A DNA stretch of 61,555 bases, taken from positions 1-61,555 of the forward strand of contig JAJRXR010000086.1 in assembly GCA_024276195.1 (NCBI GenBank), in the 5' to 3' direction. Under the pieces are notes generated by a model. It was not told where the DNA came from and did not search any database. It worked only from the letters and a program-made list of their open reading frames with translations. This stretch comes from Planctomycetota bacterium. Lineage in GTDB: Bacteria; Planctomycetota; Phycisphaerae; Phycisphaerales; UBA1924. The translations under genes were made by a program, and so were the position numbers. Shown piece after piece: positions 11,246 through 49,178 of the stretch (positions within the stretch are counted from its first letter, which is position 1; the number at the start of each line of letters is the position of its first letter).

Positions 11246-11386
11246 CTACACCGTCGCCTTCGCCTCATCCAGCACCCGCTCGGCGTACTTGGTCATCGCG
11301 CCGAGCCAGAAAATCGCCGCAGCGATCAGCCCGCCGCCAAGGACGAAGCGGATGATCCGGTCGATCGAGCCTTCGTTGGGTTTCAT
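11246..11386 (-). pseudogene. Chimeric ORF: DUF2892 N-terminus joined in frame to the phhA C-terminus
   Basis: 46 codons. The first 31 are the DUF2892 start (MKPNEGSIDRIIRFVLGGGL, ending WLGAM), and the rest is TKYAERVLDEAKATV, matching the end of phenylalanine hydroxylase (AMTKYAERVLDEAKAAV). The switch lies at CGCGATG, 7 nt present in both parents. The stop is TAG where intact phhA has TGA. The ORF keeps a start, an upstream AAGGAG-like site and one hydrophobic helix, so it could be translated, but it is a recombination product rather than a normal gene. Confidence 0.85.
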
Positions 11387-12174
11387 GGTGAGTCTCCTTG
11401 TGAGGAGCGTGATTCTAGACTGGCGCCGAAGCCGCACTCGGGGCAAGTGGGGGTGTCGGCGAGGTCGTAGGCGCATTGGGGGCAGAGGCCGCGCCGGTCT
11501 CTGAACCGTCGTCGAAGCCCTCGGTGTGTAGCACGGGTACCAGAGACAAGCCCCCACCAAGTGGCAGCGAAAACCAACGAGTTCACGAAGAGACCACGCC
11601 AGATCGGCATCATTGGCACTTCATCATCCAGGACAGGGAGGGCTGGCGACCAGCCGAGCCGTTCGACAGGACCGGCGTTGCGATACCTAAAGCTCGGGTC
11701 GTCGAGAGTCCACACTTGGGCCTTCAGTGCGCGAAGCGGCAGTCCTGTCGCGTAGACATCCACCTCGCGAGAGATGGTGACGTCTGGTTCAACGGGGGCC
11801 GTATTGTTGATCGGAATCGGAGAGTGCTGGAGCGTCACTCCATCGGTTAGCGCCAACCGTAGTTCGGTCGATGCCCAAAACGGGATCTGTGCGGTGGGGA
11901 ACGCGCGTCTTTTCATCGCAAGTGGATCGAAAGTTGATGAATGGAAGCGTGAGTTCGATAAGCTGCAACGGGTGAACGCAGGTGAATAGGCGATGCCACC
12001 CCTGATCTCGTCATCCCGCTGAAACTCACGGTTGAATATCTGTATACCACCGAAAGCGAGCCACGAACCAACGGCAACCAGGTAAGTGGTCAGAACGCCG
12101 AGCAAGAGGTAAATGGCTGCTCGTGCCATGTAGCCAGTAGAGTTGCGAGAGAGAAGTCGCATCGTGCTCGGCAC
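11383..12174 (-). CDS. Zinc-ribbon membrane protein, copy 1
   Basis: 263 residues if the GTG directly behind the phhA stop is used; an ATG 12 nt later is the alternative. N-terminal helix (AAIYLLLGVLTTYLVAVGSWLAF), extracytoplasmic middle, second helix (GLFVNSLVFAATWWGLVS), Arg-rich stretch and the ribbon CPQCAYDL...CPECGFG. The tail is nearly identical to copy 2 (ending LESRSSQGDSP against LESRSSQGNSP), while the remaining 220 residues show no obvious alignment. It probably entered behind phhA as a cassette. Confidence 0.8.
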   Translation of the reverse strand: MPSTMRLLSRNSTGYMARAAIYLLLGVLTTYLVAVGSWLAFGGIQIFNREFQRDDEIRGGIAYSPAFTRCSLSNSRFHSSTFDPLAMKRRAFPTAQIPFWASTELRLALTDGVTLQHSPIPINNTAPVEPDVTISREVDVYATGLPLRALKAQVWTLDDPSFRYRNAGPVERLGWSPALPVLDDEVPMMPIWRGLFVNSLVFAATWWGLVSGTRATHRGLRRRFRDRRGLCPQCAYDLADTPTCPECGFGASLESRSSQGDSP

Positions 12175-13080
12175 TCACACCGCCGCCTTCGCCTCGTCCA
12201 GCACCCGCTCGGCGTACTTGGTCATCGCGTCCCGCAGCTGCTCGAAGCTCTCGAGCACGTACAGGATCGGCTGGTACTTGTCGATCTCGAACGTCGTCTC
12301 GCAGACGCGCTCCAGATCGAACGGGCGGCGTTCGACCTGGCCCTTGCCGGTTCCTTCGGGGGCTTCGAGGCAGTGCTTGGCCTCGCCGTGGCTCGAGACG
12401 AGTCCCGAGCCGTAGATCTTGAGGCGGTTGTCTTCCTTGATGAGCCCGAACTCGACGGTGAACCAGAAGAGGCGGGCGAGGCGTTCGATGTGCTTCGCGT
12501 CGTCGGTGTGCAGCGCGGCCTTGCCGTAGGTCTGCAGGAAGTCGGCAAAAACCGGGTCGGCGTGCAGGGGTACATGCCCGAAGACATCGTGGAAGATGTC
12601 CGGCTCGGGCAGGTAGTCCATTTTTTCGCGCGGGCGGATGATGACGGTCGTGGGGAACTCACGCTGCGCCAGGCACGCGAAGAACGCCTTGGCGGGCAGA
12701 TACCCCGGCACCCCCCGGCTCTGCCACCCCGTCAGCGGGCGCAGATACTCGTTGATGCCCTTGATCGTCTTGCCCGGGTCGTTCGGGTCGGGCTGCTCGC
12801 CAAAGAGCATCGGGACGCGATCGGAGACCAGGCGGATCGCCCTGAGCCCGTCGATAAAGGTGTTCGAGGCCTGTTGCTCGAGCACCTCCCAGCGCTGCTC
12901 GTACATCTCCTTCCAGACCGCGTGGTTCTCAGCGGTGTACCGGTCGTACATCTGGGTGACGTAGAAGCCCTCGGTCACGATCTGGTCGGCGGATTGGCCC
13001 TCGGTCGCGTCCGCCGCAGCCTGGGCGCGGTCGAAATCGGCGCCGTCGATGATGTTGTTGTAGCTGATGTCCTTGCGCAC
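12175..13080 (-). CDS. phhA: Phenylalanine 4-hydroxylase
   Basis: 301 residues. GTG start with AAGGAGG 8 nt upstream. It is a bacterial pterin-dependent monooxygenase converting phenylalanine to tyrosine with tetrahydrobiopterin and O2. The non-haem iron site is visible: His164 and His169 in DIFHDVFGHVPL, and Glu210 in FTVEFGL. The pterin-loop region and SSHGEAKHC are also present. The last 18 codons are duplicated downstream in the chimeric ORF (two differences besides the stop codon). It transcribes away from the DUF2470-like gene, which lies upstream in the same direction about 95 nt away. Confidence 0.95.
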   Translation of the reverse strand: MRKDISYNNIIDGADFDRAQAAADATEGQSADQIVTEGFYVTQMYDRYTAENHAVWKEMYEQRWEVLEQQASNTFIDGLRAIRLVSDRVPMLFGEQPDPNDPGKTIKGINEYLRPLTGWQSRGVPGYLPAKAFFACLAQREFPTTVIIRPREKMDYLPEPDIFHDVFGHVPLHADPVFADFLQTYGKAALHTDDAKHIERLARLFWFTVEFGLIKEDNRLKIYGSGLVSSHGEAKHCLEAPEGTGKGQVERRPFDLERVCETTFEIDKYQPILYVLESFEQLRDAMTKYAERVLDEAKAAV

Positions 13081-13174
13081 GGGCCGCCTCCTTGCCTGGT
13101 GGCGTTGGGGCCATCTGGATCTTCCAGTCCAGTATACGAGCGCCGCAGCGTGACGGTTGAAGCGAGATTCTCGC

Positions 13175-13810
13175 TCAGGCGCCCCGGAGCAGGGCCTCTA
13201 TCGTCCTCGCGATCGCGTCGGCGTCCTCCCCGGGCGACTCGAACTCGCCCCGGATCACGCCCACGCCCCCGCGCACGTCGAACCCGCAGGGGTCGCACGC
13301 CACCGCGAGCGGCTCGTCCACATCAAGACCGGTCAGGGCGAGCACGCCCTTTCGCAGTGCCGCGCGGTCGGCGTTGAGCAGGCGGAGCAGGCGCCCCTCG
13401 TCGGCGCGGATCGGGTTGGGCGCCATGAGATCCTCGCCGGGCATCACGCTGTCGCTTGTTCGGGCGGTCTCGATGCGCGCCCTGGCCCAGCGCCCCAGCG
13501 AGCGCCGCCCGTGGGCCGCGATGAAGCGGTCGCACACAAACGCGGTCTCGGGGTCGATCTCTTCGAGCGAGAGCAGCAGTTGCAGCGAGGTGTCCGCGGC
13601 GCCGGGCAGCTCCTCCTCGGGCACATGCAGCACCGATTGCGACGCGCCAAGCTCCGCGGGCGTCAGCTCGAGAATGAGCGAGCCGTCGGCGGGGTCGATG
13701 ATGAATCGCCGGCGATGGACGGCGCCGTCGGTGTCGAGCGCGCCCTCGCGGTACTGGCGCAGCGTCCGCTGCGCTCGGTCGATCGCGGGATGGTCAGTCT
13801 CCTGGCTCAT
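13175..13810 (-). CDS. Protein resembling PNPOx-fold/DUF2470 haem-utilisation proteins
   Basis: 211 residues, no signal peptide. N-terminal HPAIDRAQRTLRQY and a beta-rich middle recall the pyridoxamine-5'-phosphate oxidase-like fold. The C-terminal part (LRLLNADRAALRKGVLALTG, DPCGFDVRGGVGVIRGEF) looks like DUF2470 found in HugZ/HutZ-like proteins and in stand-alone pyridoxamine-oxidase relatives. The haem-binding His of that family is not evident. The family call is moderate and the function unknown. Confidence 0.6.
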   Translation of the reverse strand: MSQETDHPAIDRAQRTLRQYREGALDTDGAVHRRRFIIDPADGSLILELTPAELGASQSVLHVPEEELPGAADTSLQLLLSLEEIDPETAFVCDRFIAAHGRRSLGRWARARIETARTSDSVMPGEDLMAPNPIRADEGRLLRLLNADRAALRKGVLALTGLDVDEPLAVACDPCGFDVRGGVGVIRGEFESPGEDADAIARTIEALLRGA

Positions 13811-13870
13811 ACCCAAGTGTGGGGGCGCCGGGGAGCCGGGGCAAGCGGGTGAGGGGTGTGGACCTCTAAA

Positions 13871-13902
13871 AAGGGCACGGGGCCGGCGCTGTGGCCGGCC
13901 CC
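13871..13902 (-). terminator. Rho-independent terminator of the H1-like gene
   Basis: GGGGCCGG and CCGGCCCC (13879-13886 and 13895-13902) form a perfect 8-bp stem with an 8-nt loop. On the minus strand it is followed after GTGCCC by a run of T. It lies about 60 nt past the stop of the lysine-rich gene. Confidence 0.75.
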
Positions 13903-13964
13903 GAAAGTCAACGATGTTCCGCAGACGGGTCCGTGGACCCGACCGGAGATAAAGAGCGCCCGCC

Positions 13965-14342
13965 TTAGCGGCGGGTCGCACGCCTCCGTGCCTTCTTGCG
14001 GGTGGCCTTCTTGCGGGTGGCCTTCTTGCGGGTGGCCTTCTTGCGAGTGGCCTTCTTGCGGGTGGCCTTCTTGCGAGTGGCCTTCTTGCGGGTGGCCTTC
14101 TTGCGGGTGGCCTTCTTGCGAGTGGCCTTCTTGCGGGTGGCCTTCTTGCGGGTGGCCTTCTTGCGAGTCGCCTTCTTACGGGTGGCCTTCTTACGGGTCT
14201 TCTTGCGAGTCGCCTTCTTGCGAGTCGCTTTCTTACGGGTGGCCTTCTTACGGGTGGCCTTCTTGCGGGTCTTCTTGCGAGTGGCCTTCTTGCGAGTCGC
14301 TTTCTTGCGGCTCGCTTTCTTTCGGGTCTTCTTCTTCGCCAT
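13965..14342 (-). CDS. Lysine/arginine-rich histone H1-like DNA-binding protein
   Basis: 125 residues, nearly all K, R, A and T: MAKKKTRKKASRKK, then about 20 repeats of the pentad KKATR, with two shortened to KKTR. GAGGAG precedes the ATG. Such tails are like the C-terminal domain of histone H1 and bacterial counterparts (AlgP, chlamydial Hc2, planctomycete and myxobacterial H1-like proteins). They condense DNA or tune nucleoid structure. No globular domain is attached, so it is a stand-alone tail. The gene is a 15-bp tandem repeat and is expected to vary in length between strains. Confidence 0.88.
   Translation of the reverse strand: MAKKKTRKKASRKKATRKKATRKKTRKKATRKKATRKKATRKKATRKKTRKKATRKKATRKKATRKKATRKKATRKKATRKKATRKKATRKKATRKKATRKKATRKKATRKKATRKKARRRATRR
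13985..14330. repeat. 15-bp coding tandem repeat (KKATR units)
   Basis: On the plus strand the unit reads GGTGGCCTTCTTGCG with small variants (GGTGGCC/AGTGGCC/AGTCGCC, TTGCG/TTACG). About 20 units plus two 12-bp ones make up almost the whole H1-like gene. Both length classes are multiples of three, so slippage would change protein length and not frame. Confidence 0.9.
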
Positions 14343-14917
14343 GGTGTGGTCTCCTCGGTTGGGTACCAGTGTTGGTCGGTCTCAATCAGAACATCGTGGA
14401 AGTGCCCGTCACAACAAACCGTATCGGTATCTGTTTACACACCGCTTGAGTCAAGCGGGCTGATCTTGCGCGGATCGTTGATCAACATGACGATCACCAT
14501 ACCGAGATCAACCAGCGTGTGCAGCGCACAGGGCGTGCTGGCGCGTGCATGAGGCGCGGTGTGACAGCGCCGATCTGCGCGATGCGCATCGCCAACGCGC
14601 TCGGCGTTCGCGCTCTCACGAACACATGCGCGACTGAATCGGACGCGCCGCGACCGGGCGCGCCGGGTGTGTTGGCGCGCAGACACACCCGGCGCGGTTC
14701 TTGCGCACGATTGCGGGTTTCGTGTGAGATCGCGTGTGTTGCGCGTGTGTTCGGGGCAGTTGCGTCGTGTTTGTTGCGCGCAGTTGGGCGCCGTTGGCGT
14801 CGAGATCATGTCTGAGAGCGCCCAATCGGCATAACCGACAGGCTCGCGCATCGACGTGTGTCGTTCCTAGACTGCGCCCAGATCAGATGCTGATTCGGAA
14901 CAGATCAAGGAGTGATG
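14343..14917. other. Intergenic region with strong CG/GCGCG bias, no convincing gene
   Basis: 575 nt between the H1-like gene and the M16 gene, which are divergent. No ORF here has a coding look. The stretch 14550-14820 is unusually rich in GCGC, GTGT and CGCG steps. It contains a perfect 14-bp inverted repeat at 14659-14672/14683-14696 (arm CGCGCCGGGTGTGT, loop TGGCGCGCAG). No T tract follows, so it is not a simple terminator. A structured leader RNA or protein-binding region is possible. Confidence 0.6.
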
Positions 14918-16156
14918 ATGACCGAACCGACACGACGAGACCTGGCCTGCGGCGTCCCGCTCATTGTGGAAAACATCCCCGCCATGCGCTCGGCGGGCCT
15001 CTGCTGGCTTCTGCCCGCCGGCTCCGTGACCGACGAGCCCAACACTCTCGGACGCTCGCAGGTGATGTCCGAGCTGCTCATGCGCGGCGCCGGCGACCTG
15101 GATTCTCGCTCGCAGGCCGACGCCTTTGACCGCCTGGGCGCCGCCCGGAGCTCGAGCTCGGGCACGACGCACCTGCGACTGAGCGTCGCGTGCCTGGGCG
15201 CCAAGCTGGGCGAAACGCTGCCATTGCTCGTGGATATGGTCCGAAAGCCTGCGCTCACCGACGACGCGCTCGCGCCCACGAAAGACCTCGCCATCCAGGC
15301 GATCGAGTCGCTCGGCGATGACCCGCAAGAGCGATGCGTGCTCGGCGCCCGCGCCAGGCACTACCCGGCGCCCTTCGACCGCTCCGGGCTCGGCACACCC
15401 GAGGGCATCGCCTCGCTCACCAGCGAAAGCGTCCGCAAGGCGTGGACGAGCCTGGGCAGGCCCGGCGGGTCGATCATCACCGCCGCGGGCGATGTGGACG
15501 CAAGCGAGCTGGGCGATCGCCTTGATTCGCTCCTCGATGGCTGGTCCGGGCAGGGCGGCTCGTACACCATCTCGGGCGAGGCGCCCCGCGGCTACGCCCA
15601 CGAAAATGACGACTCGAACCAGGTTCAGATCCTCGTCGTGCATGACGCTCCGCCCGAGCCGCACGAGGATTCCATTCTTGAGCGGGTCGTTGTGAGCGTG
15701 CTCTCGGGCGGGATGTCCGGGCGCCTGTTCACCGAGGTGCGCGAGAAACGCGGGCTGTGCTACTCCGTCAGCGCCGGCTACCGGGCGGACAAAGAGTTCG
15801 CGGGCGTCTCGGCTTACGTCGGCACCACCCCCGAACACGCCCAGGAAGCGCTCGACGTACTCCTGGGCGAGCTCGACCGGATCGCCGCGGGCATCGACCA
15901 GAGCGAGCTCGACCGGACCAGGGTCGGGATGAAGTCTCGCCTGGTCTTCGGGGGCGAGTCCACCGGCGCCCGGGCCTCGGCCCTGGCCGGCGACATGCGC
16001 GTCCTCGGGCGGGCCAGGTCCATGACCGAACTCACCGAGCGGATCGACGGCGTCACGCTCGACCGCGTCAACGACTACCTCAAGCGGCGCACGCCCGGGC
16101 GGATGACGATCCAGACCGTCGGGCCGGAGGCCCTGCGCCCGCCCGCCGGCGTGTGA
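14918..16156 (+). CDS. M16 (pitrilysin) family peptidase homologue, zinc site lost
   Basis: 412 residues. Of three adjacent start codons the ATG 5 nt after AAGGAG is preferred. It has the two-domain M16 layout and keeps the C-terminal-half motif SGRLFTEVREKRGLCYSVSAGY. In the N-terminal half the segment that should read GxxHxxEH is GRSQVMSELLMRG, so both zinc histidines and the catalytic Glu are replaced (Ser47, Met50, Ser51). Non-catalytic M16 subunits normally pair with an active partner, as in mitochondrial processing peptidase and bacterial M16B pairs. No active M16 gene is present in this window. Confidence 0.88.
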   Translation: MTEPTRRDLACGVPLIVENIPAMRSAGLCWLLPAGSVTDEPNTLGRSQVMSELLMRGAGDLDSRSQADAFDRLGAARSSSSGTTHLRLSVACLGAKLGETLPLLVDMVRKPALTDDALAPTKDLAIQAIESLGDDPQERCVLGARARHYPAPFDRSGLGTPEGIASLTSESVRKAWTSLGRPGGSIITAAGDVDASELGDRLDSLLDGWSGQGGSYTISGEAPRGYAHENDDSNQVQILVVHDAPPEPHEDSILERVVVSVLSGGMSGRLFTEVREKRGLCYSVSAGYRADKEFAGVSAYVGTTPEHAQEALDVLLGELDRIAAGIDQSELDRTRVGMKSRLVFGGESTGARASALAGDMRVLGRARSMTELTERIDGVTLDRVNDYLKRRTPGRMTIQTVGPEALRPPAGV

Positions 16157-16257
16157 TTCCGACCCGCACGGACGCCCCGACGCCGGTACGATGCTCCCGC
16201 TCGGTCTCGGGGGTGTTTCCCGCGATCGTGGTCGGGAACGAGTCAGGCGAGATTGTC

Positions 16258-17052: not shown

Positions 17053-17119
17053 GAGCCGGGCTCGGTCCGCCACCGGTCCCCGGGGGGAGCGCCCTTGCCT
17101 CTCCGGCTACACTCGCCCC

Positions 17120-35104: not shown

Positions 35105-36100
35105 ATGAGCCGAGATCACACGATGCGTGTCGTCAGCCTGCTCCCCTCGGCGACAGAATCTCTCGCCCTTCTTGGCGCGGGCCATCGCCTCGTCGGACGA
35201 TCTCACGAGTGCGACTTCCCCCCGGGCCTGTCCGCCCTGCCCGTCCTGACCGCCCCGCATGGGGTCTACGACACCGGCGCCGAAGCCCCCAGCCGCGATG
35301 TGGACGCCCGGGTCCGCAGCGCCAAAGACGCTGGCGAGCCCCTGTGCATCCTCGACGAGGCCCGCCTTGGCGCCCTCAAGCCCGATCTGATCCTGACCCA
35401 GGACCTGTGCGATGTCTGCTCGATCGACCTCGCCTCGGTCCGGCGCGCCTGCGATCGACTCGACCCGAAGCCCCAGATCCTCTCGCTCAGCCCCGAGACC
35501 ATCGAGGACATGCTCGACGACATCGTGCGCATCGGGCGGGCGATGGGCCTCGAGTCCGAGGCCCGCGCGGCCTCCGTCCGCCTGAGCGAGCGTCTGCTCC
35601 GCGCCCAGGAGCACGTCAACGCCTACGAGCAAGGCCCGGTCGTTGGGTTTATGGAATGGACCGATCCGGTCTTTGTCGCGGGTCATTGGAATGTTCAGCT
35701 GATCGAGCGGGCGGGGGGGAGGCACCCGCTCAACGAGACGGTCGCCGATGACAATGCCGGCGCCGCCTCGGGTCTCCAGCAGGGTCAACGCCGGGGGGGC
35801 AAGTCGATTGCCGTGTCTGCCGAGGTCTTCAGCGCAAGCAAGCCCGAATGGCTGGTTATCGCGCCGTGCGGGCTGAGCCTCGATCAGGTCCGCGTCGAGA
35901 CGACGCGCCTCGCACAGAACGAGTGGTTTCAAGAGCTCCCCGCGGTGAAGAACAACCGCGTCGCGCTCGTCGATGGCTCGCAGATGTTCAACCGCCCCGG
36001 GCCGAGGCTGGTGGACGCGTTCGAATGGCTGGTCGGGTGGGTGCAGGGCAGGGCGGAGCTGATGCCGGAGGAGTTCCCTTGGCAGTTATGGACGGAGTAA
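35105..36100 (+). CDS. BtuF-like cobalamin/ferrisiderophore-binding domain protein without signal peptide
   Basis: 331 residues. MRVVSLLPSATESLALLGAG and LVGRSHECDFPPG open a periplasmic_binding_2 (cluster A-II) domain. ALKPDLILTQDLCDVC, VGFMEWTDPVFVAGHW and PEWLVIAPCGLSLDQV follow. There is no signal sequence or lipobox, as in the cytoplasmic 'cobalamin-binding protein' branch of the family. It may act in corrinoid handling inside the cell. A related ABC ATPase gene lies about 6 kb away but not in an operon with it. Starts at 35105 or at an ATG six codons later. Confidence 0.85.
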   Translation: MSRDHTMRVVSLLPSATESLALLGAGHRLVGRSHECDFPPGLSALPVLTAPHGVYDTGAEAPSRDVDARVRSAKDAGEPLCILDEARLGALKPDLILTQDLCDVCSIDLASVRRACDRLDPKPQILSLSPETIEDMLDDIVRIGRAMGLESEARAASVRLSERLLRAQEHVNAYEQGPVVGFMEWTDPVFVAGHWNVQLIERAGGRHPLNETVADDNAGAASGLQQGQRRGGKSIAVSAEVFSASKPEWLVIAPCGLSLDQVRVETTRLAQNEWFQELPAVKNNRVALVDGSQMFNRPGPRLVDAFEWLVGWVQGRAELMPEEFPWQLWTE

Positions 36101-36106: not shown

Positions 36107-36628
36107 ATGTATCAGATTGACGAGAAGGATCGGGTATCTGAGTTGGTTGGCATTCCGCAATCTTCTGTTGGTGCCCCGATGCCGATCATCGTTGCGGAAG
36201 AGGGGGCGGTTGCTGTTGCCTACTACCTGCAACAACAGCAACCGGACTGGGATGGGACAGCGGTCCGCATCGTTGACCACAACGGCACCGATGAGCCGGT
36301 GGCCATTGCCTACTTCTCACTTTGTAAGGCTTATTACTCAGGCTCTCCGAACGATGAGGCGTTCAGCGGGCACCCATTGGCGAGCCGAGGGCTTGAACCG
36401 TACGGGGCGTTCGAGGTGCATGAATCGTCTTGGATTCGGGAGATGGAGCGGCGAAATTCGGTTCATCCGAGCCACCGAGGCAGGTGGTTGGAGTATCTGC
36501 GGCACTTTGTGCTGGCGTTTCATGACAGCGTCTTCGAGTGTGTCGCGAAAGATCTCGATGTGACGAGACACCAGGGCAGCGTCTCGGACGCGGTTCCTAT
36601 CATGACCGAGCGATTGTTCTCTCGGTAA
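36107..36628 (+). CDS. Accessory gene of unknown function (cassette beyond the rnr relic)
   Basis: 173 residues, no signal peptide and no recognised domain. The N-terminal part is moderately hydrophobic (MPIIVAEEGAVAVAYYLQQQ), then VRIVDHNGTDEPVAIAYFSLCKAYYSGSPNDEAF. A Trp/His-rich middle follows (HPSHRGRWLEYLRHFVLAFHDSVFECVAKDL). Codon use is much more A/T-rich than in the core genes, suggesting transfer. It starts 6 nt after the BtuF-like stop and converges on the relic of the rnr 3' end, which begins 3 nt past its stop. Confidence 0.75.
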   Translation: MYQIDEKDRVSELVGIPQSSVGAPMPIIVAEEGAVAVAYYLQQQQPDWDGTAVRIVDHNGTDEPVAIAYFSLCKAYYSGSPNDEAFSGHPLASRGLEPYGAFEVHESSWIREMERRNSVHPSHRGRWLEYLRHFVLAFHDSVFECVAKDLDVTRHQGSVSDAVPIMTERLFSR

Positions 36629-36631: not shown

Positions 36632-36730
36632 TCACTGCCTCTTCCCCTTGTCCTTGCGGTCTTTCCGATGGTCCGCCTTGCCCTTGTCGCGTGACTTGAC
36701 TTAACGCGACCGGCTCTGCAACCAAGGCGC
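36632..36730 (-). pseudogene. Relic: duplicate of the 3' end of rnr
   Basis: Read on the minus strand it encodes SRDKGKADHRKDRKDKGKRQ and a TGA stop, exactly the last 20 residues of the intact RNase R gene 1.3 kb away. Within those codons every difference is synonymous (CGC for CGG, GGG for GGA, CAG for CAA), and the stop is TGA instead of TAG. Upstream of that the match weakens (an in-frame TAA appears) and fades near 36730. No start codon or promoter, so it is a fragment. Confidence 0.9.
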
Positions 36731-36738
36731 CCAAAGCC

Positions 36739-36764
36739 GAGCCGGGAGCGCCAGCGACCAGGGA
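36739..36764 (+). repeat. REP-like element, single copy
   Basis: Begins GAGCCGGGAGCGCCAGCGAC and continues CAGGGA. It is the same core as the inverted pairs at 10182 and 37856. It lies between the rnr relic and the dockerin gene, so the cassette is bordered by REP copies on both sides. Confidence 0.8.
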
Positions 36765-36957
36765 CAAGCACGCCCCACCCCGCAGGCGCCCCAAATACTT
36801 TCCTCGCCATTCTCTGGCGGATTCGATAAAAAACCCGAAACCGGATGAAACCGGCTGGTAAGGTGTGCGGACCGTACCTGTGACTCCCGGCCGGGGAATC
36901 GCTGTCCACCCCCTGGACGGCAGCCGGGAAAGAGAACATCTGACGAGAGGACACCCA

Positions 36958-37794
36958 ATGCGTACCGCCGCACTCACCGCGCTGCTCGTGACCGCTTCCG
37001 CCGCCCAGGCCCAGCCCTTCGGGTCTCTCGTCGCTCGCATGATCGACTCGGAGTACACCATCAGCCGGTTCGTGCAGCTCGCTCCCGACAGCGCGCCAGT
37101 CGTTCGCACACGAGGCGGCGCCCGAGGAGGCAGCGCAAGTTTCAACGCGGACGCGACCGCATCGTCCTACGGCGGGTTCTTCCCCTTCAACCTCGACACC
37201 TTCACCTTTGACAGCCTGATCACCGCAGACCTCGAGGCCCACGTTGGCTTCTCGTCCCTCAACCAGCTCTCCGGCTCCTGCGTCGCCTACCGCTTCGCAT
37301 GGATCGAGGTCCATCGTCCCATCCGATACCGGATTACAGGGGAGATTCAGTCAGATCTGACGCTGACTGATGGCTGGGGATCGGCACAGGTCTTTGTCGA
37401 GATTGTCCCCGAGGTCGGGAACACCGTCGTGCGCGCTGAAGCCAGCGGCGACGAAGGCGTCCAAGTGCTGGAACTCGAAGGTGTGCTGACGCCGTTCGGC
37501 GGTCTGGAGTGGTTCTTCATCACGTTCGAGGCGTCGGCCAGCCTCACCTCGCCCGCCCTTGCGGGCCAGGGCGCCCGGGCGCTGGCGAACGTGAGCATCG
37601 AGCTGCTCCCGATGGGGTGCACCACCGCCGACCTGGCGCTCCCCTACGGCGAGCTCAACTCGAGCGACATCGTCGAGTTTCTCGGGGCCTGGACCGATCG
37701 CGAGCCCATCGCCGACTACGAAGCGCCCGAAGGCGAGTTCGACCTCACCGACGTGATGGCGTTCCTGAGCGTGTTCAACGATGGGTGCCCGTGA
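36958..37794 (+). CDS. Secreted protein with C-terminal GC-type dockerin
   Basis: 278 residues. Signal peptide MRTAALTALLVTASAAQAQ; the ATG is preceded by GAGAGGA. About 190 residues of beta-rich mature protein without a known domain follow (FNLDTFTFDSLITADLEAHV; YRITGEIQSDL). The end is the paired calcium-loop-like motif of planctomycete GC-type dockerins: CTTADLALPYGELNSSDIVEFLGAW, then EFDLTDVMAFLSVFNDGCP. These modules probably hold the protein in an extracellular assembly. The gene sits between the two copies of the rnr 3' end. Confidence 0.88.
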   Translation: MRTAALTALLVTASAAQAQPFGSLVARMIDSEYTISRFVQLAPDSAPVVRTRGGARGGSASFNADATASSYGGFFPFNLDTFTFDSLITADLEAHVGFSSLNQLSGSCVAYRFAWIEVHRPIRYRITGEIQSDLTLTDGWGSAQVFVEIVPEVGNTVVRAEASGDEGVQVLELEGVLTPFGGLEWFFITFEASASLTSPALAGQGARALANVSIELLPMGCTTADLALPYGELNSSDIVEFLGAWTDREPIADYEAPEGEFDLTDVMAFLSVFNDGCP

Positions 37795-37855
37795 CCGGAG
37801 TGGCCGGGGTGGAATGACCGAAAACGGAGCCGGCGACCTCGGGAAATCCATATCC

Positions 37856-37920
37856 GAGCCGGGAGCGCAAGCGACCAGGGGCTGTCACGAAACTCCCTGG
37901 GTCGCTTGCGCTCCCGGCTC
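37856..37920. repeat. REP-like inverted repeat, 21-bp perfect arms
   Basis: Arms 37856-37876 and 37900-37920 (core GAGCCGGGAGCGCAAGCGAC and complement) enclose a 23-nt loop that extends the pairing with one bulge. CGTTTTCG follows on the plus strand, so it could end transcripts from both the dockerin gene and, in reverse, rnr. It borders the intact rnr 3' end. Confidence 0.88.
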
Positions 37921-37932
37921 CGTTTTCGCCTG

Positions 37933-40410
37933 CTATTGCCTCTTTCCCTTGTCCTTCCGGTCTTTCCGATGGTCCGCCTTGCCCTTGTCGCGTGACTTGC
38001 TCTTGCGCGACCGGCGCTGCGAACCCGGCGTCTTCATCGAGCCGAACCCCGCGCCCGCGGACCCGCCCATGCCGCCTGCGCCCTCGCCGCCGATGTTGAG
38101 CCCGCCGACCTTCTTCGCCTTGCCCGCTGCCCGCGAATCACCATCGCTGATCGCCAGGTCCAGCTTCCGCTGCGCCAGGTCCACGCCCGCGATGTAGACC
38201 TTGACCCGGTCGCCGATGTTGTAGCTGCGCCCCGAGTTCGCATCGACCATTCCCCCGGTCCGGTCGTCAAGGAACCACTTGGGAGGCTTGTTCGAGCGCG
38301 TCGTGTCGCCCGGCAGATCCCCCTTGGCGATCATCCCGTCGGCCAGATACTTCTCAAGCTGCACAAACACGCCCCGCGCGATCACGCCCGTGATGATGCC
38401 CTTGAACTCTTCCCCGATGTGCTCGCTCAAGAGCTGGAGCACCAGGAACTGGCGCAGCTCCCGCTCGGCGCTCTCGGCATTCTGCTCCGTCCCGGAACAG
38501 TGGCGCCCGACCGTCAGCAGGTCCGTCTCGCTCGGCAGGATCTCGCGCAGCGTGCGCCCGAGCGCCTTCTTGTCGGGCTCGCTCTTGGGGCGGTCGGCGC
38601 CGTTGTTCGTTTTCTTGAGATATTCCAGCAGCGCCCGGTGGACCGTCAGGTCCGGGTAGCGCCGGATGGGGCTGGTGAAGTGCGCGTACGCCGCCGACGC
38701 CAGCGCATAGTGCCCGATGAGCGCGGGCGAGTATTCCGCCTTGGTCAGCGTGCGCAGCACCGCCATGTGCACGGGCCACGCCGCGGGCGTCCCGCTCGTC
38801 GCGTCGAGCAGCGCCTGGAGCTGCTCGCGGTCCGGGTTCTGCGGGATGGTGAACCCCGCGATCTTGGCCGACTTGCGCATGTCGTCCACGCTGCCCGGCA
38901 CCGGCTCCGGGTGGACCCGCCTTAGCAGCGGCACGCCCAGCTCCTCGAACAGCTTCGCCAGCGACTCGTTCGCCTCGACCATGAACATCTCGATGATCGT
39001 GTGCGTGAAGGCGTCGTCCTCCTCCACCGCGTCGATCACCCGCCCGTCCTCGTCAAACACCAGATCCACATCCGGCAGATCCAGGTTGATCATCCCCGCC
39101 TTGCGCCGCCGATCCCGGATCACCCGCGCCAGCGTGTCCATCTCCTTGACGGTCGCGACCAGCTCGTCGGTGTACGCCGTCTCGGTTTTGGCGTGCTTGC
39201 GCGCCTCGTCCGGGTCGCCATCGATCAGCGCCTGCGCTTCGAGATACGTCATCCGCTTGCGGCTCTTGATCAGCGAACTGCAGAACCCCCGCGACGTGAC
39301 GCTGCCCTTGCGGTCGTACCGGATGATCGCCGTCTTGGCGAACCGGGGCACGCCCTCCTGCAACGAGCAGATCCCGTTGGACAGCACCTCGGGCAGCATC
39401 GGGATCACCAGCCTCGGCAGATAACAACTGTTCCCCCGCTCGTACCCTTCCAGATCCAGCGCCGTGCCCGGCTCAATAAACGAACTCACGTCCGCGATGT
39501 GGATCCCCAGCTCCCACCCCTTGTCCGTGCGCTTGATGCTGATCGCGTCGTCGTAGTCCTTCGCGTCGGGCGGGTCGATGGTGCAGATAAACTCGCCCGT
39601 CAGGTCCGACCGGAGCTCGAGCGCCGCCTCGCCGCGCTCCTCCCACGCCTTGACCGCCTGGTCGAAGTCGCGCGTCGCCTGCCTGGCCTGCTCGACGCAC
39701 GCCTCGGGGAACGAATCCGGCTCGGGCAGCGAGTACGCCGCGATGATCGCCTGCGTCTCGACGCTCGGGTCGCCCGCCTCGCCGAGCACCTTGACGATCA
39801 CGCCCTCGCCCAGCGCCCCGCCCTCGGGGTACTCGATCAGCTCGATGACGACCTTGTCGCCCGCCTTGACGTTTTTGCTCGCCGCGTCGCGCAGGATCAC
39901 GGGGTTGCGCAGCTCCTTACCGTCCGGGTGGAGCATCCAGCGCGAGCCCTGCTGGTACACCTCGCCCGCGAAGCTCGCCCGCTTGCGCTGGGTGATCTCG
40001 AGCACCTCGCCGGCGAAGCTCTTGCCGAACCCGCCGCCAAACTTCTCACGCCTCCGGTCGCGCCGGTAGGCGATGCGCACGGTGTCGCCCGAGAGCGCCC
40101 CGAGCGTGAGATGCTCGGGGATGAAGATGTCGCCGTCGGTGGTTTTGAGCTCGGGCACGACAAACCCGAACCCCTTGGCCGTGCCCCGGAACTCGCCGAC
40201 GATCTCGCCCTCGTCGGGCATCCCGGGCAGCGTGACCCGGTCGCCCGAGCCGATCGCGATCGTCCCCCGCTCGGCCAGCTCGTCGATCGCTCTCGCAAAG
40301 TCGGCGACGTCATCCACGCCCAGCTCCTGGGCCAGCGCGTCCACGGGTTTCGGCTCATAGCTCTCGTGAGCCAGGTGCCTCAAAAGGCGCTTCTCGTAGC
40401 GCAGCGGCAT
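37933..40410 (-). CDS. rnr: Ribonuclease R
   Basis: 825 residues from the ATG of MPLRYEKRLLRHL. An N-terminal winged-helix region is followed by cold-shock domains (GEIVGEFRGTAKGFGFVVPE). The RNB catalytic domain has the four-Asp magnesium site in DPPDAKDYDDAIS, plus HIADVSSFIEPGTALDLEGYERG and HFTSPIRRYPDLTVHRAL. An S1 domain (GVIARGVFVQLEKYLADGM) and a Gly-rich then strongly basic tail (RRSRKSKSRDKGK...KGKRQ) come last. It is a processive 3'-5' exoribonuclease that degrades structured RNA. Its 3' end is copied at 36632-36730 behind the dockerin gene. Confidence 0.95.
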   Translation of the reverse strand: MPLRYEKRLLRHLAHESYEPKPVDALAQELGVDDVADFARAIDELAERGTIAIGSGDRVTLPGMPDEGEIVGEFRGTAKGFGFVVPELKTTDGDIFIPEHLTLGALSGDTVRIAYRRDRRREKFGGGFGKSFAGEVLEITQRKRASFAGEVYQQGSRWMLHPDGKELRNPVILRDAASKNVKAGDKVVIELIEYPEGGALGEGVIVKVLGEAGDPSVETQAIIAAYSLPEPDSFPEACVEQARQATRDFDQAVKAWEERGEAALELRSDLTGEFICTIDPPDAKDYDDAISIKRTDKGWELGIHIADVSSFIEPGTALDLEGYERGNSCYLPRLVIPMLPEVLSNGICSLQEGVPRFAKTAIIRYDRKGSVTSRGFCSSLIKSRKRMTYLEAQALIDGDPDEARKHAKTETAYTDELVATVKEMDTLARVIRDRRRKAGMINLDLPDVDLVFDEDGRVIDAVEEDDAFTHTIIEMFMVEANESLAKLFEELGVPLLRRVHPEPVPGSVDDMRKSAKIAGFTIPQNPDREQLQALLDATSGTPAAWPVHMAVLRTLTKAEYSPALIGHYALASAAYAHFTSPIRRYPDLTVHRALLEYLKKTNNGADRPKSEPDKKALGRTLREILPSETDLLTVGRHCSGTEQNAESAERELRQFLVLQLLSEHIGEEFKGIITGVIARGVFVQLEKYLADGMIAKGDLPGDTTRSNKPPKWFLDDRTGGMVDANSGRSYNIGDRVKVYIAGVDLAQRKLDLAISDGDSRAAGKAKKVGGLNIGGEGAGGMGGSAGAGFGSMKTPGSQRRSRKSKSRDKGKADHRKDRKDKGKRQ

Positions 40411-43959: not shown

Positions 43960-44049
43960 CCGTTCCCCTTCCGCTCGTGCCGAGGCGCCCAGCGTACACA
44001 CGCCATCGGCACAAGGCGCCTGGCGCCTCACACGGGCAGGGCGAGAACG

Positions 44050-44089
44050 TAAAAAAGCGACAGGGCGCCCGTGGGGATCGGGCGCCCTG
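44050..44089 (-). terminator. Rho-independent terminator of the dockerin gene
   Basis: Arms 44061-44071 and 44079-44089 (CAGGGCGCCCG and complement, 7-nt loop) with TCGCTTTTTT following on the minus strand. It is about 75 nt past the stop. Confidence 0.9.
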
Positions 44090-44165
44090 CCGCGAGGGGG
44101 GTGTCTCAACCCAGCGTTCTGCGAGCGCCCGGGCGACCGCCTCGGGCGAGCACGAACGTCTGGTC

Positions 44166-44999: not shown

Positions 45000-45079
45000 C
45001 GTGATTCTCCTGTAAAATGCGCTACACTCTGAAGCGCGGGGTGGGGCGAGTTTGTTTCCCAGAAACATTGCACAGAATC

Positions 45080-46393
45080 ATGCTACGGAAATATCCGACG
45101 AGTTCAAGCTCCGAGACTGGTAAAATCGAACATATTTCCCAACAATCTTCCCCAGAAACACAAACAAAGCCCGATCTTATGCACGCGCTCGCCGAGCTTG
45201 GGCACGCCCTGCAACGGGCGATGACCGATCTGGTCGAGCCGCTCACGGGCCTCACGCCCAAGCCCAACGACATCGGGCACGCCCTGAGCCTCGATCGAAC
45301 CCAGTCGTGGCGTGTCTCGCGGATGATGAGCGACGAGTGCCCGTACACCGTCCTCTATGAGTCGCCCGCGCCCAAGGGGCTGGGGCTGATCATCGACGCC
45401 GCCGAGCGGGCGGGCGCGCCCGCCGAGGCCATCGACCAGGCGCGCCTGATCGTGCGCCAGTATGGGCAGCTTCTCCAGGCGTTCCCCGAGGGGCGGGCCG
45501 GGCTCGAGGTCGCCCTCTCCGCCCGCGTTCCCAAGGCCCGCGATACCGCCAACCGGAAGGCGCGCAAGCAGGTCTCGATCGGCATGTCACAGCTGCTCGG
45601 GCTCCGCGCGACGGTGCGCTACGTCTCGGGCATCCTCGTTCCCTCGGAAAACCTCGACACCAAGGTCGATGTCGTCGCCACGGCGGGCTACATCGGCCTG
45701 CGAAGGCTCCGCTACGGCCCCTCCCCCGTCGTCTTCTCTGGCAAAATCTACACCCGCAAGCCCGGGATCGACGACCCCGCGCTCGAAACGCTCGACGGCG
45801 ACCTCGACCCCGACCCCAGGCTCAGGCTCCTCCACCAGTTCGGCTCCGTCCCCGCCGACGCGCTCACGCTCGAGCCCAGCGGCAACGAACTCCGCCTGAA
45901 GCTCGCCCCCGACTTTCCCGAGATCAACCAGCCCATCACCCTCTTCTTCGGCCAGCGCATCGCCCGCTCCCTCGAACGCTACCGCACCGATACCCGCACG
46001 CACGAGGTGGTCCACCACGCCCCGGTCCTCCCGGCGGACGTCAACATCTTCGACACCATCATCCACAAAGACCTCTACCACTCCGCCCGCCCGCCCCACC
46101 TGACCATCGAACGCTTCGGGTTCGACCCCAGCGTCCAGAGCTACAAGCCCGACGACACGTCCTTCCGGATGAACGACGATCTCCAGGCGTCCCCGCTGGG
46201 CATGGGCGTCAAGAAAATGAACACGCGCGAGGTCCCGCGTCTGGCGGATCTGCTTGGGTCTGTGTTCAGCCGCATCGGGCGTGATCCCGACGATTTCTAC
46301 GTCTTCCGCACCACCATCAACTACCTCCCCCCGGGCTTCGCCGTCACCGTCTGGCTCTCGCTCGACGAGCGGGGCGAGGCGGGACGCGCCTGA
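45080..46393 (+). CDS. Conserved-looking cytoplasmic protein, unknown function
   Basis: Up to 437 residues; the start is uncertain. The region before 45180 is A/T-rich and looks like upstream sequence, so ATG 45179 (MHALAELGHAL) is a good alternative. After that comes LSLDRTQSWRVSRMMSDE, reminiscent of a helix-turn-helix, and an alpha/beta body (LIIDAAERAGAPAEAIDQARLIVRQYGQLL; DTANRKARKQVSIGMSQLLG; LERYRTDTRTHEVVHHAPVLP). No signal peptide. It may be a transcription regulator with a ligand-binding part, but I do not recognise the family. Confidence 0.7.
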   Translation: MLRKYPTSSSSETGKIEHISQQSSPETQTKPDLMHALAELGHALQRAMTDLVEPLTGLTPKPNDIGHALSLDRTQSWRVSRMMSDECPYTVLYESPAPKGLGLIIDAAERAGAPAEAIDQARLIVRQYGQLLQAFPEGRAGLEVALSARVPKARDTANRKARKQVSIGMSQLLGLRATVRYVSGILVPSENLDTKVDVVATAGYIGLRRLRYGPSPVVFSGKIYTRKPGIDDPALETLDGDLDPDPRLRLLHQFGSVPADALTLEPSGNELRLKLAPDFPEINQPITLFFGQRIARSLERYRTDTRTHEVVHHAPVLPADVNIFDTIIHKDLYHSARPPHLTIERFGFDPSVQSYKPDDTSFRMNDDLQASPLGMGVKKMNTREVPRLADLLGSVFSRIGRDPDDFYVFRTTINYLPPGFAVTVWLSLDERGEAGRA

Positions 46394-46457
46394 TCGCTCT
46401 CGCCTGATCGCGAGCCCCCCCGCCCCGGGCGCTCCCGTGTCCATATACTCCTGGCCC

Positions 46458-47272
46458 ATGCGAAGCAGAGCACAGACCGGGGCCTTGATGCTGCTCAGCG
46501 CGATCGCGCTGCTGGTGCTGCCCGGGTGCGGGGCCTTTGGCAACGTCAAGCCCGGCGCCACCTCGCTCTTTCAGGTCTTCGCCCCGCAGGAGTCGCCGGG
46601 CAACGCCGCCGAGATGGCCCTCGATCAGTACGACCCGGACAACCGCTTCACCGGGACGGCGCTGCTGGCCAACGCCCACTTCGGGGGTGAAGATGTCTAC
46701 ATCGAGCTGTACGAGGACGCCGCCCGCGACGAGGATGCCGGCGTCCGCTGGGCGGGCGTCCGCGCCCTGGGCCTACACGGCTCGCCCGAGCACGTCCCGC
46801 TCATCATCGAACGCCTGATCGACGAGCCGGACCGCCTCGTCCGGGCCGAGGCCGCCCGCTCGCTCCAGCGCATCCACAACCCGATCGCTACCGACCCGCT
46901 GCTGCGTGCGTTGGATGAAGAGTTCGAGCCCGAGCCCGACGTCCGCGCCAGCGCCGCCCACGCGCTGGGTCAGTACGCCGAGCCCCGCGTGGTCCAGGCG
47001 CTCATCGCCTCGCTCAACGACCAGGCCCTGGTTGTGAACTACTCGACGATCCAGTCGCTGCGCACGCTCACGGGCCAGGACTTCGGCATCGAGACCCGCG
47101 CCTGGCTCGACTGGTACGACGCGACCGAGGATCTCTTCGCCGCCCGCACGCCCTACACCTACCCCGCCTTCGAGCGCAACAAGCGCCTGCTCGAGTATCT
47201 CCCGTTCATGCCCCCCCCGCCCAACGAGACCGCCTCGACGCCCGTGGGCATGCCCCCGCCCATGGACGGCTA
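46458..47272 (+). CDS. Lipoprotein with HEAT-like repeats
   Basis: 271 residues. Signal MRSRAQTGALMLLSAIALLVLPGC with a lipobox. Residues about 90-215 hold three to four HEAT/PBS-lyase-type helix pairs: VRWAGVRALGLHGSPEHVPLII, VRAEAARSLQRIHNP, VRASAAHALGQYAEPRVVQALIA, and VVNYSTIQSLRTLTGQDFG. They form a scaffold for protein binding. The C-terminus is Pro-rich (PPPPNETASTPVGMPPP). It probably acts as an envelope adaptor; the partner is unknown. Confidence 0.87.
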
Positions 47273-47427
47273 AGCGCGCCCCGCGTCGCCTCCCCCCCCT
47301 CGGCGTGACCCGTCCAGCACCCCGCCCCGCCCGTCCGAGAACGACGCTCCCGCCCGCTTGCCCCGAGCGCCTCGGGCCAGCGAGCCGATGATCCGTCTGC
47401 GTTCGCCCGAGCGCCGGAGGACCACCC

Positions 47428-48423
47428 GTGCGCGCCGTTCGATACGACGGACAACACGTCCTGCTCGACCCGCGAGCCCCCGCGCCCGAGCCCAAGGCGG
47501 GCGAAGCAATCGTTCGCCCGATCCGCGTCGCCCTCGGCCCCATCGAACGCCTGATCTGCCAGGGCCAGACCAGCTTCAAAGGCGTCATCGGGCGCGAGAT
47601 GGTCGGTGTTGTCGAGCGCGTCGAGGGCCAGCCCGGGCACGAACTCGTCGGCGCTCGCGTCGTCTGCGATCCCATCGACGCCCCGCTCGATTCTGACCTC
47701 GCCCGGCGCGGCATGAGCTGGCACGCGCCCGACCGACGCGAGCTGGGCGTCTGCGGACGCGACGGGTGCCTCGCCGAACAGGTCTGCGTCCCGCTCGTGA
47801 GCCTGCGCCGCGTGCCCGACGCGATCGATAACGACCACGCCGTGCTGTGTGTTGCGCTGTCCGAGGCGCTCCGCCTGGCCGGGCTCGTCACGGTCGAGAA
47901 CAAGCCGTACGTCAGCGTCGTCGGCGACGACGCGGTCGCGCTGCTGTGCGCACAGGTGCTGTTCTCACGCAACGCCTCGGTGCGCGTGCTCGGGCGCGCG
48001 CCCGAGCGCTCCCTGCGCTGCGAGAAGTGGGGGATCAGGCGCCGGTGCGTCTCGGAGGCCGGGCGCCTGGGCGATCAGGACGTCGTGCTCGTTGTTGACC
48101 CCACCGATGACTCGCTCGAGGTCGCGGCGGGCCTCGTCCGCCCGGGCGGGAAGGTCGTGATCGGGGGCGGCGTCTCCGGCGCCACCGGGGTCAACCACGC
48201 CGAATCACCCTCGCTCCCCGTCGCGCGATTCATCGAACGCGAGGCGCGCGTCATCTTTGCCCGCGGTGGCAAGGTCGTCGAAGCCCTCGGCGCCCTCTCG
48301 ACCAACGCCGGCGCGCTCGACCTCGCCAGCCTCATCACACGGCGCGCCCGCTTTGACGATTCCATCGCAGCCATCCGCGCCTCGGACAGCGTTGACCAGC
48401 TCAAGGTCGTCATCGACCTCTGA
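47428..48423 (+). CDS. Medium-chain dehydrogenase/reductase (alcohol/threonine dehydrogenase-like)
   Basis: 331 residues from a GTG with GGAGG upstream. N-terminal GroES-like part (KAGEAIVRPIRVALGPIERLICQG; GREMVGVVERVE, where most members have GHE). Then AEQVCVPLVSLRRVPD and a Rossmann part (VSVVGDDAVALLCAQVL; VVLVVDPTDDSLEVAAGLVRPGG). The glycine motif is degenerate (VVGDDAV in place of GxGxxG), and the structural-zinc cysteines are mostly absent, so activity is uncertain. Its last 69 codons and stop are duplicated behind the next gene at 95% identity. Confidence 0.82.
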   Translation: MRAVRYDGQHVLLDPRAPAPEPKAGEAIVRPIRVALGPIERLICQGQTSFKGVIGREMVGVVERVEGQPGHELVGARVVCDPIDAPLDSDLARRGMSWHAPDRRELGVCGRDGCLAEQVCVPLVSLRRVPDAIDNDHAVLCVALSEALRLAGLVTVENKPYVSVVGDDAVALLCAQVLFSRNASVRVLGRAPERSLRCEKWGIRRRCVSEAGRLGDQDVVLVVDPTDDSLEVAAGLVRPGGKVVIGGGVSGATGVNHAESPSLPVARFIEREARVIFARGGKVVEALGALSTNAGALDLASLITRRARFDDSIAAIRASDSVDQLKVVIDL

Positions 48424-48458
48424 ATGTTTCGGGACGCTCGTGCGGGTATGCTCCGGGC

Positions 48459-48968
48459 ATGAGCGATTCCCGACCCGCACCATCGAACGGCCTCGGCATC
48501 GCCGGGTTCATCGTTTCTCTTGTCGGGCTCGTCCTCTGCCTGGGCCTGATCAGCCCGATCGGGCTTCTGCTCTCGTTCATCGCGCTGTTCAAGCGCCCCC
48601 GCGGCTTCGCGATCGCTGGTTTCATCATTGGGCTCATCGGATCGGCATGGATCATCCTGGCAGGTGTTGTGATTTTCAGTATGGGCGCCGGGGTTATAGC
48701 ACTCGGAGCGAGCGGATTTGCGATCGCTGGCGATGTTATGAAAATCAACGAGGCGATCAGGTTGCACCACAGCTCGAACGGCGTGCTGCCCGCCGATCTC
48801 AGCGTGCTCCAGCTCGATCAGGAGACGCTGACTGATCCGTGGGGGACGTACTACAGGCTTGAGGTCGATCCTGATGGGCGCCACTACACGATCAGCACCG
48901 CCGGTCGCGACATGGTCTGGGATACCAACGATGATCTTACATTCGACCGAAACGTTCTCGGGCCGTAG
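48459..48968 (+). CDS. DUF4190-type membrane protein with a GspG-like C-terminal domain
   Basis: 169 residues. The first 75 are a two-helix DUF4190-like module (GLGIAGFIVSLVGLVLCLG; GFAIAGFIIGLIGSAWIILAG). After a third hydrophobic stretch the tail (INEAIRLHHSSNGVLPADLS; LTDPWGTYYRLEVDPDGRHY; GRDMVWDTNDDLTFD) follows the major-pseudopilin GspG pattern (DPWGxxY...D.DG...ST.G.D...TDDD). It is a cassette gene: its stop TAG is directly joined to the relic of the preceding gene's 3' end. Confidence 0.8.
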   Translation: MSDSRPAPSNGLGIAGFIVSLVGLVLCLGLISPIGLLLSFIALFKRPRGFAIAGFIIGLIGSAWIILAGVVIFSMGAGVIALGASGFAIAGDVMKINEAIRLHHSSNGVLPADLSVLQLDQETLTDPWGTYYRLEVDPDGRHYTISTAGRDMVWDTNDDLTFDRNVLGP

Positions 48969-49178
48969 CTCCCCGTCGCGCGCTTCATCGAACGCGAGGC
49001 GCGCGTCATCTTTGCCCGCGGGGGCAAGGTCATCGAAGCCCTCGGCGCCCTCTCGACCAACGCCGGCGCGCTCGACCTCGCCAGCCTCATCACACGTCGC
49101 GCCCGCTTTGACGATTCCATCGCGGCCATCCGCGCCTCGGATAGCACCGACCAGCTCAAGGTCATCATCGACCTCTGA
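48969..49178 (+). pseudogene. Relic: duplicate of the MDR dehydrogenase 3' end
   Basis: 210 nt aligned without gaps to 48214-48423; I count 10 mismatches in 8 codons. Five of these are synonymous and three conservative (Val to Ile twice, Val to Thr). The frame and TGA stop are intact, but there is no start. The lack of frameshifts or nonsense changes suggests both copies were coding while they diverged. This points to import of an allele from a relative rather than decay of a local duplicate. Confidence 0.93.

What the first reader, a model, noticed from the sequence alone, without database searches (positions are those of the whole stretch)
11246..49178. Proposed general process: core genes collect accessory cassettes by recapturing their own 3' ends
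Three unrelated core genes in one 61-kb window (phhA, rnr, MDR) are each followed by accessory gene, copy of the core gene's 3' end, accessory gene. No integrase, transposase or att site is visible. The cassettes encode short membrane, zinc-ribbon or secreted proteins with A/T-richer codon use. The core gene always stays intact, because the incoming DNA restores the reading frame. It resembles stacking of displaced tips in polymorphic-toxin loci, but here ordinary metabolic genes serve as anchors. I know of no description of this, though I cannot search.
Basis: inference. Interest (0 to 1): 0.85.

Follow-up and report, generated by a model that had tools for sequence, protein, structure and literature searches.

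The report
Stacked accessory genes behind core-gene tails
In this uncultured Phycisphaerales bacterium, small accessory genes pile up behind ordinary core genes and each extra one follows a short second copy of the core gene's end, probably because differing strain versions of one chromosomal slot were joined in series by recombination; it looks real, but it was seen in this genome and hardly at all in the relatives sampled.

Summary
Three core genes (phhA, rnr, an MDR dehydrogenase) are each followed by accessory gene, partial copy of the core gene's 3' end, accessory gene. Copies are 53, 89 and 211 nt at 90-96% identity. A sample of 45% of the genome added three core genes of the same build (uvrC, a beta-CASP nuclease, a methyltransferase-like gene), two of them stacked twice. 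It is not general: 2 of 1342 tails and 3 of 1288 heads in relatives. The slots vary in the genus, and two co-assembled haplotypes of this bin have a polA slot occupied and empty. Tail copies differ from the core most often at third codon positions (24 of 44), so they look like another strain's alleles. Best reading: slots working like minimal mobile elements, whose strain alleles were joined in series by homology-anchored illegitimate recombination; at two loci the core-gene end also carries the next gene's translation start. A strain-chimera artefact is unlikely but not excluded without reads.

The parts
12175..13080 (-). phhA (biopterin-dependent aromatic amino acid hydroxylase), intact anchor gene
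   Evidence: PF00351 E 3.9e-55; 84-89% identical in three same-genus genomes
11383..12162 (-). accessory A: membrane protein with C-terminal zinc ribbon (my reading), no Pfam family
   Evidence: 29% identical to B without the last 45 residues; GC3 0.62
11294..11497 (-). repeat copy 1: zinc-ribbon end of A plus first 30 codons of the YgaP-like-TM gene, running into the phhA tail copy
   Evidence: 94.6% of 204 nt to 10380-10583
11246..11300 (-). phhA 3'-end copy with stop codon (TAG instead of TGA); joint shares CGCGATG with both parents
10469..11188 (-). accessory B: second zinc-ribbon membrane protein of the same family
10380..10583 (-). repeat copy 2: zinc-ribbon end of B and 5' end of the complete YgaP-like-TM gene
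10251..10472 (-). complete YgaP-like-TM gene (PF11127) behind the phhA slot
   Evidence: E 7.4e-21
37933..40410 (-). rnr (RNase R), intact anchor gene
   Evidence: PF00773 E 8.8e-98
36958..37794 (+). accessory r5: predicted secreted protein with a dockerin-like C-terminus (my reading), antisense to rnr
   Evidence: C-terminus shared with many genes of the genus; absent from the slot in G002
36632..36723 (-). rnr 3'-end copy with stop codon (TGA instead of TAG) and an in-frame TAA upstream
36107..36628 (+). accessory r4, orphan gene
   Evidence: no Pfam hit; no other hit in DNA held; unrelated to r5 (Z -0.4)
35123..36100 (+). periplasmic-binding-protein gene that closes the rnr slot; lies about 15 nt behind rnr in G002
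   Evidence: PF01497
47428..48423 (+). MDR alcohol-dehydrogenase-like gene, intact anchor gene
   Evidence: PF08240 E 3.8e-7
48459..48968 (+). o1, native membrane-protein neighbour of MDR in the genus
   Evidence: same place in G001, G002, G003, similar C-terminus read by eye
48968..49178 (+). MDR 3'-end copy with stop codon, starting at the o1 stop codon
   Evidence: 95.3% of 211 nt; 10 differences, 6 at third positions
49232..49696 (+). accessory o3, two-TM PH-like protein (fold class is my reading), seen in this genome only
   Evidence: 1 of 7 genomes has it; no Pfam hit
49726..50985 (-). 2-hydroxyacid dehydrogenase that closes the MDR slot
   Evidence: PF02826; directly behind o1 in G002 and G003

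Best explanation
The spaces behind these core genes are polymorphic slots that work like the minimal mobile elements of Neisseria: different strains carry different small gene cassettes between the same two core genes and exchange them by homologous recombination in those genes. At the stacked loci one further step occurred: DNA of a strain with cassette A and of a strain with cassette B were joined by one homologous crossover in a flanking core gene and one illegitimate joint that linked the end of cassette A to a point inside the core gene of allele B (7 shared bases at phhA, the only joint where both parents are visible). The result is core - A - core tail - B - next core gene. Core gene and both accessory genes survive; the tail is left as a scar. 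At uvrC and the methyltransferase-like locus the accessory start codon overlaps the tail's stop codon, so the core tail also carries the next gene's translation start, which may explain why the tail is kept. Shown: anatomy, recurrence, slot polymorphism between haplotypes at polA and, in G002, uvrC, third-position excess in the tails. Inferred: the parent alleles, the recombination route, DNA uptake as the source, and the value of the tail for translation.
For: Recurrence at six core genes in 1.376 Mb, stacked twice at the beta-CASP gene (tails 150 nt 96.7% and 92 nt 87%) and at uvrC (57 nt 94.7%, then an exact 18-nt tail before a third accessory gene; that 18-mer occurs only twice in the sample). 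Homology ends within 4 nt of the core stop codon in six of the seven tails; the beta-CASP third tail runs 14 nt past it. Where the preceding accessory gene is co-directional the tail starts 0, 1, 19, 21, 22 and 58 nt behind its stop, and at phhA 82 nt, inside the cut YgaP-like gene. Synteny: rnr slot empty in G002; MDR-o1-dehydrogenase in G001-G003. Haplotypes in the same bin: polA - 210-codon accessory ORF - amidohydrolase (C71) vs polA - 140 nt - amidohydrolase (C74), polA ends 94% identical, identity breaking at the polA stop (both gene names read by eye). G002 holds an occupied and an empty uvrC slot. Tail differences fall 10/10/24 on codon positions 1/2/3, plus swapped stop codons at phhA and rnr. 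A ComEC family protein is present in 4 of 4 genomes of the genus searched.
Against: Only one genome shows it at this density; 0 strict TAIL rows in 2.32 Mb of relatives, 2 of 1342 by the other test. No strain carrying a single-cassette version of a stacked locus was seen, so the two parent alleles are inferred. At the beta-CASP locus the two accessory genes are 75.7% identical in repeated [tail-spacer-gene] units, which fits tandem duplication as well. The rnr and beta-CASP tails hold a stop or a frameshift, so part of the difference is decay, not allelic. ComEC also rings in 10 of 14 control genomes, so it proves no natural transformation.
Confidence: 0.6

Rival explanations
1. Tandem duplication of [core tail + accessory gene] inside one genome, followed by fast divergence or replacement of one accessory copy.
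Confidence: 0.22
2. Assembly artefact: two strain haplotypes of one slot placed in series in the contig (false tandem duplication).
For: The bin does contain haplotypes at 94-99% identity, the same level as the tails; the layout core-A-tail-B-next gene is what serial placement would give (type described in PMC2864568, passages read). Tail differences mostly look allelic.
Against: Many contig ends share exact 141-nt overlaps, the mark of a k=141 de Bruijn assembly without scaffolding (assembler behaviour recalled); a joint over a few shared bases then needs reads across it. Where haplotypes differ the assembly left separate contigs (polA; uvrC in G002). Tails of 18, 43, 53 and 57 nt are far shorter than k. 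The rnr and beta-CASP tails carry a stop or a frameshift near the joint. In the sample no same-stretch pair of >=88% is longer than 275 nt.
Confidence: 0.1
3. An unrecognised site-specific element that uses core-gene 3' ends as attachment sites and restores the gene on entry.
For: Homology ends at or near the stop codon and the core gene stays intact, as with integrases that target gene 3' ends (recalled).
Against: Tail lengths range from 18 to 211 nt and the tails printed show no common core sequence by eye; 0 of 8 accessory proteins had a Pfam hit. A recombinase elsewhere in the genome was not searched for.
Confidence: 0.04

Closest known systems
Minimal mobile elements (MME) of Neisseria (definition read in passages of PMC3082526, which cites Saunders and Snyder 2002 and Snyder et al. 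2007)
   Same: Different whole-gene cassettes between two conserved genes in different strains, incorporated through homologous recombination; low G+C strain-specific genes.
   Different: As described there cassettes alternate between the flanking genes. Here cassettes are added in series with a partial copy of the flanking gene between them.
Homology-facilitated illegitimate recombination (HFIR; passages of PMC6382021)
   Same: A RecA-dependent homologous anchor combined with an illegitimate joint at microhomology.
   Different: HFIR is documented in laboratory transformation; here it is inferred from scars, and competence of this organism is untested.
Displaced or orphan tips in Rhs/CDI polymorphic-toxin loci (concept recalled)
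   Same: A copied stretch of the anchor gene sits between successive cassettes. In E. coli K-12 rhsA-yibA-yibJ the copy is 471 nt at 94%.
   Different: In rhsA the copied stretch is internal (403 nt before the stop); here the copy includes the stop codon and the cassettes are separate genes behind metabolic or nucleic-acid genes.

Membership tests
Minimal mobile element | different whole-gene cassettes between two conserved genes in different strains | tested here: met
   polA slot in two haplotypes of the own bin, uvrC slot in two haplotypes of G002; for the three window slots seen only between species
Minimal mobile element | incorporation by homologous recombination in the flanking genes | tested here: inconclusive
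   tails look allelic but no donor/recipient strain pair was available
HFIR product | one homologous side and one joint at a few shared bases (3-10, recalled) | tested here: inconclusive
   phhA joint shares 7 nt with both parents; at the other joints one parent is not visible
HFIR product | RecA-dependent recombination after DNA uptake | not testable with these tools
   ComEC family protein in 4 of 4 genus genomes and 10 of 14 controls; function unknown
Polymorphic-toxin displaced tip | anchor is a toxin-carrier gene whose C-terminus is exchanged | tested here: not met
   anchors are PhhA, RNase R, MDR, UvrC, beta-CASP nuclease by Pfam (the methyltransferase-like gene had no Pfam hit); the copied stretch includes the stop codon
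Integrase-mediated element at a gene 3' end | constant attachment core between sites | tested here: not met
   tails of 18 to 211 nt without a common core sequence by eye
Integrase-mediated element at a gene 3' end | recombinase gene | tested here: inconclusive
   0 of 8 accessory proteins had a Pfam hit; rest of the genome not searched

The most novel reading that the evidence does not exclude
Core-gene 3' ends work as portable docking modules: a core tail (homology arm, Shine-Dalgarno and stop/start overlap) plus one small membrane or secreted gene is a mobile cassette without integrase, which adds itself repeatedly behind core genes and builds translation-coupled accessory arrays, active in this lineage now.
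Probability: 0.2. Interest if true: 0.75.

Novelty: new variant of a known kind. Interest (0 to 1): 0.5.

Why it matters
If confirmed, it gives a readable scar for additive cassette gain without mobile-element genes: counting orphan core tails would measure how often bacteria stack rather than replace accessory genes, and would show which core genes serve as slots. It would explain some strings of orphan membrane genes behind housekeeping genes in this lineage.

Tried and rejected
Chance: rejected (20 of 20 shuffles without a pair). Set aside in the own genome: 15 tail-downstream, 16 tail-upstream, 4 and 7 internal, 2 head-upstream. Orphans in relatives: G001 1 tail-downstream, 2 tail-upstream, 1 internal; G018 1 head-upstream; 75 others 1 tail-downstream, 2 tail-upstream, 2 head-upstream.

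Rows dropped by inspection: HEAD rows of L081 (dispersed repeat) and L126 (doubtful start); INTERNAL rows of L072 and L081 (dispersed repeats) and of L110, L126, L136 (near dockerin-like ends); NEAR rows of L081 and L099; TAIL rows of L136 (31 nt) and L140 (contig terminal repeat). The L118 TAIL row is a zinc-ribbon array and not counted among the six core genes. The methyltransferase-like gene is cut by the end of its stretch and so is not; its count rests. At >=75% identity TAIL genes are 17 own, 4 G001, 0 G018, 1 of the 75 loci; most own and G001 extras look like shared dockerin-like ends, not checked one by one. Two NEAR rows in relatives (L253 in G018, a zinc-ribbon array; L216, not examined) are tail-like copies ending 12-16 nt before a stop. 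Inverted copies: two rows, neither an evident core tail. Purely neutral decay of tails: not the main pattern. E. coli control: one 50-kb piece.

Literature: nine answered searches, listings seen only in part (for example 15 of 23, 6 of 200), showed no description of core-gene tails between stacked cassettes; passages of four papers were read. The library lacks most subscription journals; the original MME and HFIR papers were seen only as references.
Full report
What is there. Self-comparison of the window confirms three core-gene 3' ends copied downstream: MDR 211 nt at 95.3%, rnr 89 nt at 89.9%, phhA 53 nt at 96.2%, each copy lying between two accessory genes. At phhA a second repeat of 204 nt (94.6%) carries the zinc-ribbon end of the accessory gene and the first 30 codons of the next gene (YgaP-like TM), so the phhA locus is two versions of [phhA tail - zinc-ribbon membrane gene - YgaP-like gene] in series, the first cut inside the YgaP-like gene and joined to phhA at a shared CGCGATG. 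Shuffled windows gave no such pairs in 20 of 20 trials.

Polarity. The window is contig C78 of a 3.04-Mb, 88-contig genome. So o1 is native and [MDR tail + o3] is added, starting at the o1 stop codon. o3 has no match in 6 of 6 other genomes searched; r4, o3 and two uvrC accessories have no other tblastn hit in the DNA held from L045 on. A and B are 40% identical overall and 29% without the last 45 residues, about as far from each other as from the slot genes of G001 and G002 (22-30%).

Elsewhere in the genome. I sampled 89 stretches including the window, 1,376,418 bases, with a home-made gene finder. The >=85% scan gave 12 TAIL, 3 HEAD, 17 INTERNAL, 4 NEAR, 28 paralog, 17 same-gene and 20 intergenic rows. 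After inspection (dropped rows are listed under Tried and rejected) the TAIL rows hold, besides the window: a beta-CASP nuclease (C39) with two tail copies (150 nt 96.7%; 92 nt 87.0%) around FG-GAP secreted paralogues; uvrC (C64; 57 nt 94.7%); a methyltransferase-like gene (C34; 43 nt 90.7%; function read by eye, no Pfam hit) between two zinc-ribbon genes; and a zinc-ribbon array behind a guanylyltransferase-like gene (C62; read by eye). At uvrC an exact 18-nt tail, found only at these two places in the sample, precedes a third accessory gene of 196 codons.

Relatives. The same test gave tail-downstream orphans in 1 of 258 genes in G001, 0 of 263 in G018 and 1 of 821 in 75 further Phycisphaerales loci (75 of the 80 loci; five records already held were left out), and head-upstream orphans in 0 of 244, 1 of 243 and 2 of 801: no 3' excess. 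The >=85% scan gave 0 TAIL, 3 HEAD and 2 NEAR rows in 2,319,479 bases of relatives. Of 164 family genomes 82 had any match to the beta-CASP end; the two orphan tails of the own genome stand out, short-frame matches in G046 (contig end) and G103 were not followed. For uvrC 158 of 164 matched (listing capped); the short-frame matches followed, G002 C88 and G145 C3, lie at contig ends and look like second haplotypes; G058, G159 and G044 were not followed. So the stacking is a property of this genome in the present sample.

Are the copies strain alleles? Over seven core/tail pairs the 44 differences fall 10, 10 and 24 on codon positions 1, 2 and 3; phhA and rnr tails have a different stop codon from the resident gene. 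Against a purely allelic reading, the rnr tail has an in-frame TAA and the longer beta-CASP tail a one-base deletion, both near the joint. Contig ends of the bin overlap at 94-99% (898, 424, 417, 357, 319, 221, 187 nt), so co-occurring strains differ about as much as tail and core do. One pair of contigs shows a slot in both states: polA - 210-codon ORF - amidohydrolase and polA - 140 nt - amidohydrolase, identity breaking right after the polA stop (names by eye). G002 shows the same for uvrC.

Artefact. Exact 141-nt overlaps between contig ends point to a k=141 de Bruijn assembly without scaffolding (recalled behaviour). Tails of 18-57 nt and a joint with 7 shared bases are hard to produce that way, and where strains differ the assembly left separate contigs. 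Reads were not available, so I keep 10% for this.

Mechanism. Slots between core genes with exchangeable cassettes match the minimal-mobile-element definition as read in PMC3082526 (passages). Addition instead of replacement needs one illegitimate joint, as in homology-facilitated illegitimate recombination (PMC6382021, passages). A ComEC family protein occurs in 4 of 4 genomes of the genus, which permits but does not show DNA uptake. At uvrC (TGATG after GGGGAG) and the methyltransferase-like gene (TGATG) the next accessory start overlaps the tail's stop, so the tail carries its translation start; that this keeps the tail is inference, and at MDR and the beta-CASP gene there is no such overlap. 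The polymorphic-toxin comparison was run on one locus: in E. coli rhsA the copied stretch is internal, 403 nt before the stop.

Verdict. A real-looking, recurrent scar pattern of this lineage; not shown to be general. It works like minimal-mobile-element exchange with an added stacking step; membership in that class is met in part and otherwise inconclusive.

Noticed in passing
L127:11108-11756 and L130:425-563 (own contigs C71 and C74): Two haplotypes of one bin differ by a 210-codon accessory ORF directly behind polA; the downstream amidohydrolase also has different N-terminal residues in the two.
   Followed up: yes
L118:17419-20000 (own contig C62): Tandem array of zinc-ribbon membrane genes behind a guanylyltransferase-like gene, with a 172-nt 93.6% repeat at successive gene boundaries.
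   Followed up: partly
L120:2416-3024: A third membrane gene behind uvrC (2416-3006) is preceded by an exact 18-nt copy of the uvrC end (3007-3024) including Shine-Dalgarno and stop.
   Followed up: yes
L140 (own contig C85, 4622 nt): Exact 141-nt terminal repeat, as a small circular replicon assembled at k=141 would show; the repeat also matches the start of contig C83, so it may instead be a repeat node.
   Followed up: no
window 13965-14342: Lysine/arginine-rich histone-H1-like protein made of 15-nt repeats (ATRKK), conserved in relatives.
   Followed up: no
window 10144-10230, 36731-36772, 37848-37905; L130 about 430-560: A palindromic GGTCGCTGGCGCTCCCGGCTCGG-type intergenic repeat recurs at slots and elsewhere, REP-like.
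   Followed up: no
L081 (own contig C25): Many dispersed 30-114-nt repeats, in and between genes, in one 20-kb stretch, unlike most of the sample; possibly a different genome in the bin.
   Followed up: no
L253:5163-6900 (G018): Tandem zinc-ribbon genes with 87% similar ends and divergent middles in another genus of the family.
   Followed up: partly
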